The notes beneath the pieces are model-generated. The model was not told where the DNA came from and made no database searches. It was given only the letters and a program-made list of their open reading frames with translations. Made by a program: the position numbers and the translations under genes. Below are positions 15-36,520 of a DNA stretch of 64,000 bases, piece after piece. Position 1 is the stretch's first letter. Each line of letters begins with the position of its first letter. Origin of the DNA: Pigmentiphaga humi (GTDB lineage Bacteria; Pseudomonadota; Gammaproteobacteria; Burkholderiales; Burkholderiaceae_B). The stretch spans positions 1 to 64,000 of the forward strand of contig NZ_UWPJ01000009.1 in NCBI RefSeq assembly GCF_900606115.1, given 5' to 3'.

Positions 15-863
15 TTAGTCGGCGTCGGGGGTGGCGGCCAGGAGGGCGGCTAGGATGGCGGCGGTTTGGGGGTCTAGGTCGCCGTCGTAGCGGGCGGGCC
101 GGTAGTGCATCTGGAAGGCTGCGAGCGTGGTGCGGGTCTGCTGGTCGAATTCGCCGGTTTGAGGGACGCCGTAGCCCAGGCGCGCCAGTTGCTGCTGCAC
201 CCAGGCCGCGTCGGGCAGGCCTTGCTGGATGAAGCGCTCGGCCAGGGCCTGGGCGACGGATTCGTCGTACCAGCGGCCGAAGCCCTCTTGCGCCAGTTCC
301 TTCCATGGGAACAGCGGCCCGGGATCCTGCTTGCGCAGCGGCGCGATGTCGCTGTGGCCGACGATGTCCTCGGGCGCGATGCCGTGGCGCGCGACGATGT
401 CGCGCAGCAATGCCTTCACTGCCCGGATCTGCGCCGCGTCATAGGGTTGCCAGAGCGGCGTACCGTCCGGCGCGGCGCCCATCGGGCCGCGGTTGACGAT
501 CTCGATGCCGATCGAGGTGCGGTTGAGCCAGCTATACCCCTGCCATTCGCTGCGCCCGGCGTGCCACGCGGCCTGGCTTTCGTCGACCAGGCGGTAGACG
601 CGGGGCGGATCGCTATCGGTCACCAGGTAGTGGCTGCTGACCTCGCCCTGGCTGAGGGTGCCCAGCGCCCGGGCGGAATCCGACACCGTGTAGTGCAGCA
701 CCACGAACTTGACGCGGCTCCCCTGGCTGCGGGCATCGATGGACGTATCGATCTCGAGCCGGCCGGCATCCCGCGGCGTCGTACAGGCCTGCAGCGCCAG
801 CAGCGCGGACAGCGCCAGGATCGTGCCCGGCGCTCGTGCGAGAGAAAAAAACGGCATGCGCAT
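15..863 (-). CDS. N-acetylmuramoyl-L-alanine amidase, AmiD-like lipoprotein
   Basis: Predicted 282-residue zinc amidase that cleaves the bond between N-acetylmuramic acid and L-alanine in peptidoglycan or its turnover fragments. The N-terminus is a lipoprotein signal ending in a lipobox (ALQAC, Cys about residue 27), so the enzyme is probably anchored to an outer-membrane face in the periplasm. An Amidase_2 domain follows: VVLHYTVS carries the first zinc His, the GHSDIAP stretch a later one, and GIEIVNRG is a family motif. The last ~70 residues look like a peptidoglycan-binding helical domain (VQQQLARLGYGVPQTGEFD). It lies 117 bases after the efflux operon on the same strand and may be co-transcribed. 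The start is uncertain, since Met3 would also work and neither has a clear ribosome-binding site. Confidence 0.85.
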   Translation of the reverse strand: MRMPFFSLARAPGTILALSALLALQACTTPRDAGRLEIDTSIDARSQGSRVKFVVLHYTVSDSARALGTLSQGEVSSHYLVTDSDPPRVYRLVDESQAAWHAGRSEWQGYSWLNRTSIGIEIVNRGPMGAAPDGTPLWQPYDAAQIRAVKALLRDIVARHGIAPEDIVGHSDIAPLRKQDPGPLFPWKELAQEGFGRWYDESVAQALAERFIQQGLPDAAWVQQQLARLGYGVPQTGEFDQQTRTTLAAFQMHYRPARYDGDLDPQTAAILAALLAATPDAD

Positions 864-980
864 CGAAGAAACGTGGAAGTGGATGGGCTCTCGCTACGAT
901 AACCCACCGCCATCGGCAGCCGAGGCGGCCTGGCGCGAACGGGAAGACGGCAGATGCCGCCGCCCCCTGCCCCTCTGCGC

Positions 981-2582
981 TCAGTGCGCGCCGCCCGCGT
1001 CCGCCGGCGCACCCTGGCCGCGCTTGCCCGGGCGCGCAAACCACACCATCGCGGTCAGGACCACGAAAATGATGGCCGAGCCGTAGAAAATGTCGACGGC
1101 CGACATGGTCAGCGCCTGGCCGTTGATCATGTTGTTGATCGACGCCATGGCCTGCTCCGGCGACATGCCCGCGGCCTGCATGCTGGACAGCGCCTGGCCC
1201 GCCGCCGGGCTGTCCGTGGCGATGTGTTCGGCCAGGTGGGCATGGTGCATGGCGGCGCGGTCCTCCCACATGGTGGTCGAGATCGAGGTGCCGAACGCGC
1301 CTGCCGTAATGCGCAGGAAATTGGACAGGCCCGACGCGCTGGCGATTTTTTCGGCCGGCTGCCCGGCCAGAGTCAGCGACACCAGCGGCACGAAGAAAGC
1401 AGCCATGCCCGCCCCCTGGATCAAGGTGGGTTCGAGCAGCGTCATGATGTCGGACTGCGGCGTGAAGCCCGCGCGCATGAAGCTGACCCCGGCGAATACT
1501 CCGAAGGCCATCGTTACCAGCACCCGCGGATCGGTGTGGGCGAGCATGCGGCCCACCACCGGCGTCAGCACGATGGCCAGCAGGCCGACCGGCGCGGTCA
1601 CCAGGCCGGCATCGGTGGCGGTGTAGCCCATCTGCGTCTGCAGCCACAGCGGCAGCAGCACCACGTTGCCGAAGAACACCGCGTAGGCTACGGACAAGGT
1701 CAGCGCCCCCACCGTGAAGTTGCGGCCGGCGAACAGCCTCAGGTCCACGACGGGATGTTTGTCGGTCAATTCCCAGATCACGAAGAAGACGAGGCCGACC
1801 ACGGCGATCACCGCCAGCGTGACGATGAAGCCGCTGGCGAACCAGTCGAGCTCCTTGCCTTTGTCCAGCATGATCTGAAGGGCGGCGATCCAGACCACCA
1901 GCAGCACCAGCCCCACGGTATCGATGGGCAGCTTGCGGATGGGCGACTCGCGCTTGTGGTAGATCATCCAGGTCGCCCATGCCGACAGCAGGCCGACCGG
2001 GATGTTGATGTAGAAGATCCACGGCCACGAGTAGTTGTCGGAGATCCAGCCGCCCATCAGCGGCCCGGCCACCGGCGCCACCAGGGTCGTCATCGCCCAC
2101 AAGGCCAGCGCCATCCCCGATTTCTCGCGCGGATAGCTGCCCAGCATCAAGGTCTGCGACAGCGGGATCATCGGCCCGGCCACCAGCCCCTGCAGCACGC
2201 GAAAGGCGATCAGCGACTCCAGGTTGGGCGCGAGCCCGCACAGCCACGAGGCCACGATGAACAGCAGCACCGATGCGATGAACAACCGCACCTGCCCGAA
2301 GCGCATGGTGAGCCAGCCGGTCAGGGGCAGCGAAATGGCGTTGGCTACCGCGAACGAAGTGATTACCCAGGTGCCCTGGCTCGTGCTCACGCCCAGTTCG
2401 CCCGAAATGGCAGGCAGCGAGACGTTGGCGATCGAAGTGTCGAGCACGTTCATGAACACCGCGGCCGATAGCGCGATCGTGCCCAGCAGGCGCTGGCCGC
2501 CCTGCAGGGGCGGATACGAATCCTGCGGCGCGGGCCGCGTGTCGGCGGGCGCGTCGGACTGCGAAGAAACGGAAGTGGTCAT
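981..2582 (-). CDS. DHA2-family multidrug efflux MFS transporter (EmrB/QacA type)
   Basis: Predicted 533-residue inner-membrane drug:proton antiporter with about 14 hydrophobic segments, the usual size for the DHA2 family. Seen motifs include LDTSIANVSLPAI in the first helix, typical of EmrB-like proteins, and the gating-type stretch GPLMGGWISDNYSWPWIFYI. The start was set at the ATG leading into MTTSVSSQSD; an upstream in-frame extension is Arg/Pro-rich and lacks family similarity. It lies 25 bases downstream of the HlyD-type adaptor gene and completes a tripartite pump with that adaptor and the outer-membrane factor. Substrates cannot be read from the sequence. Confidence 0.93.
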   Translation of the reverse strand: MTTSVSSQSDAPADTRPAPQDSYPPLQGGQRLLGTIALSAAVFMNVLDTSIANVSLPAISGELGVSTSQGTWVITSFAVANAISLPLTGWLTMRFGQVRLFIASVLLFIVASWLCGLAPNLESLIAFRVLQGLVAGPMIPLSQTLMLGSYPREKSGMALALWAMTTLVAPVAGPLMGGWISDNYSWPWIFYINIPVGLLSAWATWMIYHKRESPIRKLPIDTVGLVLLVVWIAALQIMLDKGKELDWFASGFIVTLAVIAVVGLVFFVIWELTDKHPVVDLRLFAGRNFTVGALTLSVAYAVFFGNVVLLPLWLQTQMGYTATDAGLVTAPVGLLAIVLTPVVGRMLAHTDPRVLVTMAFGVFAGVSFMRAGFTPQSDIMTLLEPTLIQGAGMAAFFVPLVSLTLAGQPAEKIASASGLSNFLRITAGAFGTSISTTMWEDRAAMHHAHLAEHIATDSPAAGQALSSMQAAGMSPEQAMASINNMINGQALTMSAVDIFYGSAIIFVVLTAMVWFARPGKRGQGAPADAGGAH

Positions 2583-32641: not shown

Positions 32642-33790
32642 TCAATCGAACAGCGAAATCTGCCGCGCATCGCCGCGCTTCGCCGCCCCGGCAGGCCGCC
32701 CGGGCGGCCGGAACGACCCGATATCCAGCTCGATGCGCCGCCCCGCCAAACCGAACTGCCGCAACGCGCGCATGAAGCGCTGCCTGACCAGGTCGGCCCA
32801 GATGCCCTCGCCCCGCATGCGGCTGCCGAAACGAGGGTCGTTGAGCCGCCCGCCCCGCAAATCTTCCAGCCGATGCAGCACCCTTGCCTTGCGATCGGGA
32901 AAGTGCGCCTCCAGCCAGTCGGTGAATATCGTCCGGACCTCCCAGGGTAGCCGCAGCATGGTGTAGAACGCCGTCTGCGCGCCCGCCTGCGCGACCGCTT
33001 CCAGCACCTGCTCGATGTGGTCGTCGGTAATGAAGGGAATGACCGGCGCCAGCGACACGCCCACCGGCACGCCGGCCCGGGTCAGTTCGCGCACCAGTTC
33101 CACCCTGCGCCATGGCGCGGCGGCACGCGGCTCGAGGGTGCGCGCCACCGCGCCGTCCAGGGTGGGTATCGTGACGTAGACCGCCACCAGCCGCAATTCC
33201 GCCAGCCTCGCGAGCAGGTCCACGTCGCGCCCGAGCAGCGCGCCCTTGGTGACCAGCGACACGGGATGGCGCGTCTCGAGCAGCAGTTCCAGCAGGCCGC
33301 GGGTGAGCTTCCAGCTGCGCTCTATGGGCTGGTAGGCATCGGTGGCCGAACCGATGTTGATGACGTCCACGCGGTAGCCCGGACGGGACAGCTCGGCGCG
33401 CAGCGCTTCCACGGCATTGGCCTTGGCGACCAGCCGCGTCTCGAAATCCAGCCCCGGCGACCAGCCGAGGTAGGCATGGGTGGGACGGGCGAAGCAATAG
33501 ACGCAGCCGTGTTCGCAGCCACGATAGGGATTGATGGCCCGGTCGAACGGAATGTCGGGCGAATCGTTGCGCGACAGAATCTTGCGGGCGCGCTCGACCG
33601 CGACCTCGGTCTTCAGGCGCGGGGCCTCGTCAGGGGGCTGCGCCCAGCCGTCGTCGACCGCGCTGCGCTGGTCGGCATCGAAGCGATGCGCGACGTTCGC
33701 CACGGCGCCGCGGCCGCGCTGCGGCACAGGCGGCGCGGCGGCAAAGCCCGGCTCGGTAAGGTCATGATCATCCACTTCGATACTGTACAT
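32642..33790 (-). CDS. PA0069-family radical SAM protein (SplB-like)
   Basis: Predicted 382-residue radical SAM protein. The 4Fe-4S/SAM motif CxxxCxxC is NPYRGCEHGCVYCFARPTHAY near residue 95. Additional family blocks are ILSRNDSPDIPFDRAINPYRG, SVLVTKG-type SLVTKGALLGRD, and APVIPFITDDHIEQVLEA. Proteins of this type are related to spore photoproduct lyase and are annotated as DNA-repair photolyase-like, without proven chemistry. The ATG at 33790 lies inside a LexA box and a candidate promoter, so the true start may be the GTG at 33775 (five residues shorter). Divergent from an SOS-type helicase gene. Confidence 0.88.
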   Translation of the reverse strand: MYSIEVDDHDLTEPGFAAAPPVPQRGRGAVANVAHRFDADQRSAVDDGWAQPPDEAPRLKTEVAVERARKILSRNDSPDIPFDRAINPYRGCEHGCVYCFARPTHAYLGWSPGLDFETRLVAKANAVEALRAELSRPGYRVDVINIGSATDAYQPIERSWKLTRGLLELLLETRHPVSLVTKGALLGRDVDLLARLAELRLVAVYVTIPTLDGAVARTLEPRAAAPWRRVELVRELTRAGVPVGVSLAPVIPFITDDHIEQVLEAVAQAGAQTAFYTMLRLPWEVRTIFTDWLEAHFPDRKARVLHRLEDLRGGRLNDPRFGSRMRGEGIWADLVRQRFMRALRQFGLAGRRIELDIGSFRPPGRPAGAAKRGDARQISLFD

Positions 33791-33800
33791 ATATACAGTA
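33781..33800. promoter_or_regulatory. LexA (SOS) box between radical SAM and helicase genes
   Basis: TACTGTACATATATACAGTA differs from the E. coli LexA consensus TACTGTATATATATACAGTA at one position and keeps both CTGT/ACAG half-sites with an 8-base spacer. It lies in the gap between the radical SAM gene (minus) and the UvrD-like helicase (plus). A minus-strand promoter candidate (TTGTCA 33810-33805, 17 bases, TACAGT 33787-33782) runs through it. Confidence 0.88.
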
Positions 33801-33933
33801 TTTTTGACAATCGGCCAGGGCGAACCGTGGCTCGAAGGCGCGGGAAAAGCACCGACTCGGCCACCCGGCCTGCGTGGACATTCTCGCGGAGGCATCCTCC
33901 GTACCGGACCATGCGCCGGTTTACACTGCCGGC

Positions 33934-36075
33934 ATGAGTTCCCTACTACTGACTTCGGAACAGCGGCAGATCGTGTCGTACGGCGGCAGGTTCCTGCTGA
34001 TCGACGCCGTCGCCGGCTCGGGCAAGACCACGACGCTGGCGCACTGCATCGCCCATCGCGAGCGCCGCGGCGTCGCGGCCGAGAGCATCCTCGCCCTGGT
34101 TTTCACGCCGGCCGCGCGCGAGGTCCTGCAGCAGCGCCTGGCCCAGGCGGGCGCCTCGCGCGCGGTCCGGGTCTCGACCTACGCGGACTTCGCCCGCTCC
34201 CTGCTCGAGGGCTGGCGCAGCCAGGGGGTCATAGACGGCGCCGAGGTCTACCTGGCCGATGCCGAAGCCATGCGCCCCTATGTGTACGAGGCCATCGAAA
34301 CCGCGGCCGCGGACCCGGGCGCCGATCCGGACTACGGCTACGACCTGAACAATCTGCACGCCGAAGCCGTCATCAACCAGCTGTCGCGCCTGAAAGGCAC
34401 GCTGGCGCTGGCAGGCAGCGGCGACGTCTCCGATTCGGAACTGGCCGACCAGTTGGACCTGCCGCGCGGACTGGTCGCCGTCTGCCGGGCCTACGAGCGG
34501 CTGCGGCGCATCGACATCGGACACTACGCCTTCCAGAGCGAACACGATCTGGTCGGCGACGTCCTGGCGGTATGCGAGCAACTGGGCGGGCTCGCGGCGC
34601 TGCCCCACCCCGCGCTCATCGTCGCGGACGAATGGCACGACGCCAATGCGGCGCAGATCACGCTGCTGAGCCGGCTCACCGGCACGGATACGGCCATCAT
34701 CGCGGCCGGCGACAAGGAACAGGTCGTACACAGCTGGAACGGCGCCGATCCGCGCTATATGGGCGAAGCCTTCGAGCACCTGTTCGGCGGCACGCGGCGC
34801 TTGCCGCTGGCCTTCTCTTTCCGCTGCGGACCGACGCTGGGCGGCTGCGCCCAGGCGCTCACCGCGCAGCGCTTCGAGTCCGGGCGGCAGGGCGATACCG
34901 AGGTCGACATCCTGGCCTACGGCCGCACGCAGCAGGACGATTGCGGCGCGCAACTGGCAGCCGCCCTGGCGCAATCGACGCGCGCCGGCTCGGGCCTGGC
35001 CCTGTCCGACTGCGCGGTGATCCTGCGCGACGCGCATCAAAGCATCGCGCTCGAAAACGCGCTGATCGCCCACGACATCCCGTACGTCACCGACGGTTGC
35101 CAGAGCTATGTGGACCGCATCGAGATCCTGATGCTGCGCGGCATCCTGCACATCGCCCGGCAGTCCATGGCACCGGTGCGCGAACCCGCCGAAGTGGGCG
35201 CCGTCCTGCGCGCGCTGGGACTGTTCGCCGGCCTGGACTACACCGAAGCCGAATGGCGGGACGCGGAAAAAACCATTGCCGCCGATCCCGAGACCATCCG
35301 CTATTTCTATCGCGGCCGGCTCAGCCAGACGGCCGATGCGCAGGAAGCCGTGGACGCCGGCACGCGCCGCTGGCGGGCCCGCTTCGCCCAGGTGTGCGAG
35401 CACCTGCTGGCCCAGGCGCACGCATGGTCCGCCGGACAGCTGCTGGCATACGCCGCGCGCGAACTGAACATTGCGGATGCCACCCGCCGGCTGTTCGTCC
35501 ATCGACTGGACGCGCTGGCCGTGGCTCGCTCCATCGAAGGCTTCATCGCCTATGCCGGCGCCACGGGCCTGGACGCGGCAGGCCTGCTCGACCAGTTGCA
35601 CCAGGCGCAGCAGCACAGCGGCACATGGCGCAAGAGCCGGCGCCGGCCCTTGACGCTGACCACCGCGCGCGCCGCCAAGGGCAAGGAATGGCGCGCCGTG
35701 CACATTCCCTACGTGGCCGACGGCGAGTTCCCGCAAGCGCATGCCGACCCCGCCGAGGAGCGGCGGCTGTTCTACGTGGCCATGACGCGAACCTGCGAAC
35801 GGCTGGTGCTCTACACGCCGCAGGGCCACGATAGCCACTTCATCCGGGCGCTGAACCTGCCCGCCGCGCGCCGGGCCGCACGCGACCGCCCTTCCTTAGC
35901 GGCGACAGCACCCACCCGCCTCTACCTCCACGTACCCTATGCGGACAAGGACTCAGCCCGGCAACTGGGAGCGCAGTGGGATCCCGTACAAAGAAAATGG
36001 TGGATCACGCTGCGCATGCCCCGGCGCCCCTTCGCGAAATGGCTGCCCGCCGATGACGGCGCCGGCCAGCCGTGA
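33934..36075 (+). CDS. UvrD/Rep-like superfamily 1 helicase with C-terminal DUF5710 domain
   Basis: Predicted 713-residue ATP-dependent DNA helicase. Walker A is DAVAGSGKTTTL (A27-T33), motif II LIVADEWHDAN, motif III GDKEQVVHSWNGADP, motif V LTTARAAKGKEWRAVHIPY and motif VI ERRLFYVAMTRTCERLVLY, so all superfamily 1A motifs are present. The final ~50 residues (RLYLHVPYADKDSARQLGAQ, KWWITLRMP) match the small DUF5710 domain, common on DNA-processing enzymes. The ATG at 33934 gives LLLTSEQRQIVSYGGRFLLI, the UvrD-like Q-motif. It lies 134 bases from the LexA box, which suggests DNA-damage induction. The ssDNA substrate is unknown. Confidence 0.9.
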   Translation: MSSLLLTSEQRQIVSYGGRFLLIDAVAGSGKTTTLAHCIAHRERRGVAAESILALVFTPAAREVLQQRLAQAGASRAVRVSTYADFARSLLEGWRSQGVIDGAEVYLADAEAMRPYVYEAIETAAADPGADPDYGYDLNNLHAEAVINQLSRLKGTLALAGSGDVSDSELADQLDLPRGLVAVCRAYERLRRIDIGHYAFQSEHDLVGDVLAVCEQLGGLAALPHPALIVADEWHDANAAQITLLSRLTGTDTAIIAAGDKEQVVHSWNGADPRYMGEAFEHLFGGTRRLPLAFSFRCGPTLGGCAQALTAQRFESGRQGDTEVDILAYGRTQQDDCGAQLAAALAQSTRAGSGLALSDCAVILRDAHQSIALENALIAHDIPYVTDGCQSYVDRIEILMLRGILHIARQSMAPVREPAEVGAVLRALGLFAGLDYTEAEWRDAEKTIAADPETIRYFYRGRLSQTADAQEAVDAGTRRWRARFAQVCEHLLAQAHAWSAGQLLAYAARELNIADATRRLFVHRLDALAVARSIEGFIAYAGATGLDAAGLLDQLHQAQQHSGTWRKSRRRPLTLTTARAAKGKEWRAVHIPYVADGEFPQAHADPAEERRLFYVAMTRTCERLVLYTPQGHDSHFIRALNLPAARRAARDRPSLAATAPTRLYLHVPYADKDSARQLGAQWDPVQRKWWITLRMPRRPFAKWLPADDGAGQP

Positions 36076-36079
36076 AACC

Positions 36080-36520
36080 ATGACACCGCCGCCCAGACCA
36101 GACCCCACGTCCGCAGAATTCCGCTCCCCGCCCGGCCCGCTGATGCGCATGCTGATGTACGCCGCGGCGCTGCTGTGCCTGGCACTGGGCGTCATCGGCA
36201 TTTTCGTGCCGGGCCTGCCCACCACGGTCTTCATCCTGATGGCCGCCTGGCTGGCCGCGCGCAGTTCGCCCCGACTGCAGGCGTGGCTGGAAAACCATCC
36301 CCTGTTCGGCTCGATGATCCGCAACTGGCGCAAAGAAGGCACGGTGAGCCGGAAAGCCAAGTGGAGCGCCACGATCACCATGGCGCTGTGCGCGGCGATA
36401 CTGTTCATCGTGCCGGCCCCGGCGTGGGCCGCCTGGCTGAGTTGCGCCGCCATGGGCGGCGTGGCGGTCTGGCTGTGGATGCGCCCCGAGCCCACCGCCG
36501 AGGAGACGGCGCAAGGCTGA
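36080..36520 (+). CDS. YbaN-family (DUF454) membrane protein
   Basis: Predicted 146-residue inner-membrane protein. Three to four helices follow a short Pro-rich N-terminus; the family block LALGVIGIFVPGLPTTVFIL, then AAWLAARSSPRLQAWLENHP and FGSMIRNWRKEGTVSRKAK, is diagnostic of DUF454/YbaN. Function is unknown. It begins four bases after the helicase stop, so it is probably in the same transcript and may share SOS control. An ATG at 36053 is also in frame, overlapping the helicase gene. Confidence 0.85.
   Translation: MTPPPRPDPTSAEFRSPPGPLMRMLMYAAALLCLALGVIGIFVPGLPTTVFILMAAWLAARSSPRLQAWLENHPLFGSMIRNWRKEGTVSRKAKWSATITMALCAAILFIVPAPAWAAWLSCAAMGGVAVWLWMRPEPTAEETAQG

What the first reader, a model, noticed from the sequence alone, without database searches (positions are those of the whole stretch)
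33781..33800. Near-consensus LexA box between a radical SAM gene and a helicase-DUF5710 gene: a candidate SOS module
TACTGTACATATATACAGTA is one base from the E. coli LexA consensus. It lies in the divergent gap between a PA0069-type radical SAM protein (SplB-like) and a superfamily 1 helicase with a C-terminal DUF5710 domain; a DUF454 membrane gene follows the helicase by four bases. Two uncharacterised DNA-acting proteins under one SOS box suggest a damage-response pair, perhaps lesion recognition or repair by the radical SAM enzyme with strand opening by the helicase. From memory, PA0069 relatives have been listed as LexA targets in Pseudomonas; the pairing with this helicase is what I find unusual.
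Basis: partly seen in the sequence, partly recalled or inferred. Interest (0 to 1): 0.8.

Follow-up and report, generated by a model that had tools for sequence, protein, structure and literature searches.

The report
SOS-controlled radical SAM gene, helicase incidental
The DNA-damage switch seen here is real, but related genomes show that it belongs to a radical SAM repair-type gene of a kind already known as an SOS target, and the neighbouring helicase most likely sits beside it only through local gene order.

Summary
The LexA box at 33781-33800 is real: 19 of 20 bases match the E. coli consensus and 0 of 100 shuffles give a match within three mismatches. The flanking genes are as described: a PA0069-family radical SAM gene, and a UvrD-like helicase with C-terminal DUF5710, followed after four bases by DUF454.

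The proposed pair fails. A site with at least 14 of 20 consensus matches precedes the radical SAM gene in 61 of 61 genomes examined. Among helicase relatives only the window's own copy has one of 15 or more (1 of 33 loci, 31 genomes). In the other 10 genomes of the genus the two genes are 3.4-4.9 kb apart (8), about 100 kb apart (1) or on different contigs (1). The only promoter-like site in the gap points to the radical SAM gene, and the box covers its -10 and most of its spacer.

Most likely LexA represses the SplB-like gene alone. SOS control of splB in alpha- and beta-Proteobacteria is already predicted in print (PMC3323433, passages). This is an ordinary new instance. Helicase co-regulation in this one species is not excluded, but unlikely.

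The parts
33781..33800 (.). LexA box (SOS operator), 19 of 20 consensus bases
   Evidence: a site of at least 14 of 20 before the radical SAM gene in 61 of 61 genomes
33782..33810 (-). sigma-70-like promoter TTGTCA-N17-TACAGT of the radical SAM gene; the box covers the -10 and most of the spacer
   Evidence: only promoter-like site in 33600-34050, shuffles mean 0.0. At the same place a -35 with 4 or more matches occurs in 22 of 61 genomes against 5 of 61 in a shifted control
32642..33775 (-). PA0069-family (SplB-like) radical SAM gene, GTG start, CxxxCxxC motif
   Evidence: NF033668 461.7 bits, PF04055, translation
33934..36075 (+). UvrD/PcrA-like superfamily 1 helicase with C-terminal DUF5710 (35917-36048); neighbour, judged not part of the SOS unit
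   Evidence: box and adjacency tests
33918..33927 (+). GGTTTACACT element just before the helicase ATG, perhaps its own -10 (inference)
   Evidence: present in 8 of 8 aligned genomes of the genus, own included; no promoter-like site found on the plus strand
36080..36520 (+). DUF454 membrane-protein gene behind the helicase; neighbour
   Evidence: PF04304 127.3 bits

Best explanation
The box is the operator of the PA0069-family radical SAM gene only. LexA sits on the -10 and spacer of that gene's promoter and blocks transcription; after DNA damage, RecA-stimulated LexA cleavage frees it, and the SplB-like 4Fe-4S radical SAM enzyme is made, presumably to act on damaged DNA. The helicase-DUF454 pair is a separate unit that lies next to the box in this one species because the genes that separate the two in its relatives are absent here (lost here or gained there). 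Shown by sequence: the box, the genes, the box kept with the radical SAM gene, and its absence at the helicase in relatives. Inferred: LexA binding, induction, the enzyme's substrate, and the helicase's own promoter.
For: Site of at least 14 of 20 (60 of 61: at least 15) before the radical SAM gene in 61 of 61 genomes; in-gene control 0 of 61 loci from 59 genomes. Only promoter-like site in the gap points to this gene and overlaps the box. Helicase: box of 15 or more in 1 of 33 loci (31 genomes), the window's own. Adjacency in 1 of 11 genomes of the genus. Radical SAM gene over the cut-off in 60 of 185 genomes of the class, helicase in 1 of 185, its own. lexA of the E. coli type in the genome (TIGR00498).
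Against: No binding or expression data. The box lies 133 bases from the helicase ATG, a distance at which an operator cannot be ruled out. Both genes occur together in the family sample more often than expected (18 both, 7 helicase only, 37 radical SAM only, 59 neither; p 0.003, not corrected for descent). In other families of the class only 2 of 30 PA0069-type genes have an E. coli-type box, so the link box-radical SAM is not general.
Confidence: 0.86

Rival explanations
1. First reader's module: one LexA operator controls both divergent genes, and enzyme and helicase work together on lesions as a kept functional pair.
For: Box between two divergent DNA-acting genes; co-occurrence above expectation in the family sample (p 0.003, uncorrected).
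Against: No adjacency in 10 of 11 genomes of the genus nor in the 13 other genomes with both genes; no box at the helicase in the other 30 genomes; 7 of 25 helicase genomes lack the radical SAM gene and 37 of 55 radical SAM genomes lack the helicase in the family sample.
Confidence: 0.04
2. Lineage-specific capture: in this species alone the helicase (and DUF454) came under the LexA operator when the genes between were lost or never gained, without being an ancient pair.
For: Only here is the box 133 bases from the helicase ATG.
Against: The conserved GGTTTACACT element sits at the helicase ATG, over 110 bases from the box; the only promoter-like site points the other way.
Confidence: 0.08
3. 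Chance match: the palindrome is no LexA site.
For: The bare CTGT-N8-ACAG core is expected 0.39 times in the window.
Against: 0 of 100 shuffles match the 20-base consensus within 3 mismatches; the site is kept before the same gene in 61 of 61 genomes.
Confidence: 0.02

Closest known systems
LexA-regulated splB of alpha- and beta-Proteobacteria (PMC3323433, passages seen) and Bacteroidetes (PMC8565304, passages seen)
   Same: An SplB-like radical SAM gene with a LexA site upstream
   Different: Other species; PMC3323433 passages do not name PA0069 or Bordetella, and its beta-Proteobacteria are those with multiple chromosomes. I did not test whether its splB genes belong to NF033668.
PA0069 of Pseudomonas aeruginosa (recalled as a LexA target in Cirz et al. 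2006; that paper is not held)
   Same: Same NCBIfam family, NF033668
   Different: Regulation of PA0069 not checked here; PMC8565304 cites Cirz et al. among its references for SOS control of SplB
UvrD/PcrA/Rep helicases
   Same: Superfamily 1 helicase core domains; best solved-structure match UvrD1, E 4.6e-25
   Different: Far below the equivalog cut-offs (pcrA 100.6 bits against 911.2); C-terminal DUF5710

Membership tests
LexA (SOS) operator, E. coli type | palindrome close to TACTGTATATATATACAGTA (consensus recalled) | tested here: met
   19 of 20
LexA (SOS) operator, E. coli type | overlaps a promoter of the controlled gene | tested here: met
   overlaps TTGTCA-N17-TACAGT of the radical SAM gene, a consensus match only
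LexA (SOS) operator, E. coli type | kept before the same gene in relatives | tested here: met
   radical SAM 61 of 61 genomes; helicase 1 of 31; but 2 of 30 radical SAM genes in other families of the class
LexA (SOS) operator, E. coli type | LexA binding and damage induction | not testable with these tools
   needs bench work
PA0069 radical SAM family (NF033668) | profile score over the curated cut-off | tested here: met
   461.7 against 360 bits
Spore photoproduct lyase (SPL) | sequence match to a solved SPL structure | tested here: not met
   no PDB chain at E up to 1; so works-like is analogy, membership not claimed
Spore photoproduct lyase (SPL) | repair of spore photoproduct | not testable with these tools
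   needs an assay
   1 of 11 genomes of the genus; 0 of 13 others with both
Gabija helicase GajB | GajB-like helicase beside a defence partner | tested here: inconclusive
   partial helicase-core matches, best 102.1 bits; radical SAM and DUF454 neighbours gave no PADLOC match, other neighbours not scanned

The most novel reading that the evidence does not exclude
In this species alone a rearrangement has put the DUF5710 helicase within reach of the LexA operator, so that a helicase confined to a few genera has newly joined the SOS response beside a radical SAM enzyme.
Probability: 0.08. Interest if true: 0.35.

Novelty: new member of a known kind. Interest (0 to 1): 0.15.

Why it matters
It shows how to tell which gene an SOS box serves when it lies between two: follow the box in relatives. 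The PA0069-type gene had a LexA-like site in each of the 61 genomes examined in and around this genus, which makes it a good case for finding out which lesion this uncharacterised enzyme treats. The supposed enzyme-helicase pair, if taken at face value, would have been a false lead.

Tried and rejected
Rejected: the radical SAM-helicase SOS pair (see full report). Rejected as unsupported: the helicase as a known defence protein; its PADLOC matches are partial GajB and RTasHel helicase-core matches, best 102.1 bits. Led nowhere: plasmid search with the helicase, no match at 1e-30; solved-structure search with the radical SAM protein, no match at E up to 1; the box at C45, where the two reading frames scanned gave no Pfam match. 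Not decided: whether adjacency here is ancestral or due to loss of the genes between; two more distant genomes of the genus (L109, L110) have other genes in between than the nearer ones. No tree was built and no structure predicted. Dropped before counts: four genomes whose only matches were below the cut-off (G002, G010, G106, G110) and the extra weak or partial second matches in G053 and G114, loci L025 and L026, 25-27% identical, were left out of the counts; only the 30 best of 61 genomes' matches were scored.

Full report
Observation. The 20-base match to the LexA consensus is beyond chance in the window, though the bare core is not. The genome carries an E. coli-type lexA (TIGR00498, 217.9 bits). 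A consensus-like box lies before lexA and before recA, before a TIGR03916 radical SAM gene, and about 0.65 kb before an impB/mucB-type polymerase frame. The site fits this genome's own LexA motif. By its relatives the genome is close to Pigmentiphaga (Alcaligenaceae).

Which gene does the box serve? I took every genome with a PA0069-family match over the cut-off in a 121-genome sample of the family (55 genomes; four with weaker matches only were dropped) and the six further genomes of the genus. In all 61 the best site, from 500 bases upstream to 20 bases into the tblastn match, has at least 14 of 20 consensus matches, in 60 at least 15. In-gene control stretches reached 15 in 0 of 61 loci from 59 genomes. 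One has a box of 15 or more, the window's own; the next best is 14 of 20 with neither half-site intact (L050).

Gene order. In the 11 genomes of the genus the genes are adjacent only in the window's genome. In eight they lie 3.4-4.9 kb apart, in G121 about 100 kb, and in G126 on different contigs, with porin-like and receptor-like genes before the helicase. In six of these eight (L118-L123) matches to a hydrolase, a GntR-type regulator and a tricarboxylate-type receptor lie between, in four of the six also a porin; these names come from reading translations, not from a profile search. The other two (L109, L110) have only weak matches there (28-33%). Outside the genus 20 genomes of the sample have a helicase match, 13 of them also the radical SAM gene: on one contig in four, the closest about 144 kb apart (G061), on different contigs in nine. 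Class-wide the radical SAM gene is over the cut-off in 60 of 185 genomes, the helicase (E up to 1e-40) found in 1 of 185, its own.

Promoters. The one promoter-like site in 33600-34050 is TTGTCA-N17-TACAGT on the minus strand, so the box covers the -10 and most of the spacer of the radical SAM promoter. A -35 with four or more matches at that place occurs in 22 of 61 genomes against 5 of 61 for a shifted control, so this architecture is kept in part of the set only. Six bases lie between the -10 and the GTG, so the transcript may have almost no leader (inference). The helicase keeps GGTTTACACT 6-7 bases before its ATG in 8 of 8 aligned genomes, own included, whatever lies upstream; L109, L110 and L125 were not in that alignment and showed no DNA match to the helicase start in the same call. 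It may be a -10 (inference; no -35 was found).

Mechanism. LexA represses and RecA-stimulated cleavage derepresses: established for LexA, not tested here. The enzyme has the radical SAM CxxxCxxC motif and the PA0069 profile. Its substrate is unknown; lesion reversal as in spore photoproduct lyase is an analogy, and no solved structure matched by sequence.

Known work. PMC3323433 (passages) predicts LexA control of splB in alpha- and beta-Proteobacteria. PMC8565304 (passages) calls SplB SOS regulated in several species, citing Cirz et al. 2006 among others, and also names a uracil-DNA glycosylase pair (COG1573-COG4277). PMC3765255 (passages) links SplB-like proteins to SOS gene neighbourhoods. 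PMC5435343 and PMC11233732 (passages) list an SplB gene among induced genes and DUF5710 on plasmid Rep proteins. The three papers listed for PA0069 were not opened. I saw no paper on this pair in the searches; the library is partial.

Results against my reading. The E. coli-type box is not general for PA0069-type genes: 2 of 30 in other families of the class, some of which may have another LexA motif (not tested). Co-occurrence of the two genes in the family sample is above expectation (18, 7, 37, 59; p 0.003, counted by hand, uncorrected for descent). And 133 bases is not too far for an operator to act. None of this makes the pair a kept unit.

Noticed in passing
L031 (G000:C36:43200-47200), box 1513-1532, gene 293-1501 minus strand: A second radical SAM gene, TIGR03916 (linked to a uracil-DNA glycosylase gene by its profile name), also has a LexA box. 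A site of 15 or more precedes it in 19 of 19 genomes with this gene in the 121-genome family sample, in-gene control 0 of 19. SOS control of a COG1573-COG4277 pair is in print (PMC8565304, passages); that it is the same gene is my recollection.
   Followed up: partly
L166:1495-2163 (G000:C23): The genome's only other DUF5710 domain is fused to the N-terminus of an RNase HI. With the helicase this suggests that DUF5710 is a nucleic-acid-binding add-on, perhaps for RNA-DNA hybrids (inference).
   Followed up: partly
L169:304-876 (G000:C12), site at 915-934: An HNH endonuclease gene, found in 5 of 121 genomes of the family sample, all of this genus, has a LexA-like site upstream in its own genome (14 of 20); in the other four the site has one half broken (13, 13, 15, 15 of 20).
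   Followed up: partly
L027:1546-1565 (G000:C45): A near-consensus box, TACTGTATATAAATACAGTT, about 0.4 kb from a tRNA-His gene; the two reading frames scanned beside it gave no Pfam match.
   Followed up: partly
L040, L042, L045: Three helicase relatives in other genera have stop codons inside the matched frame, so the helicase may be decaying there.
   Followed up: no
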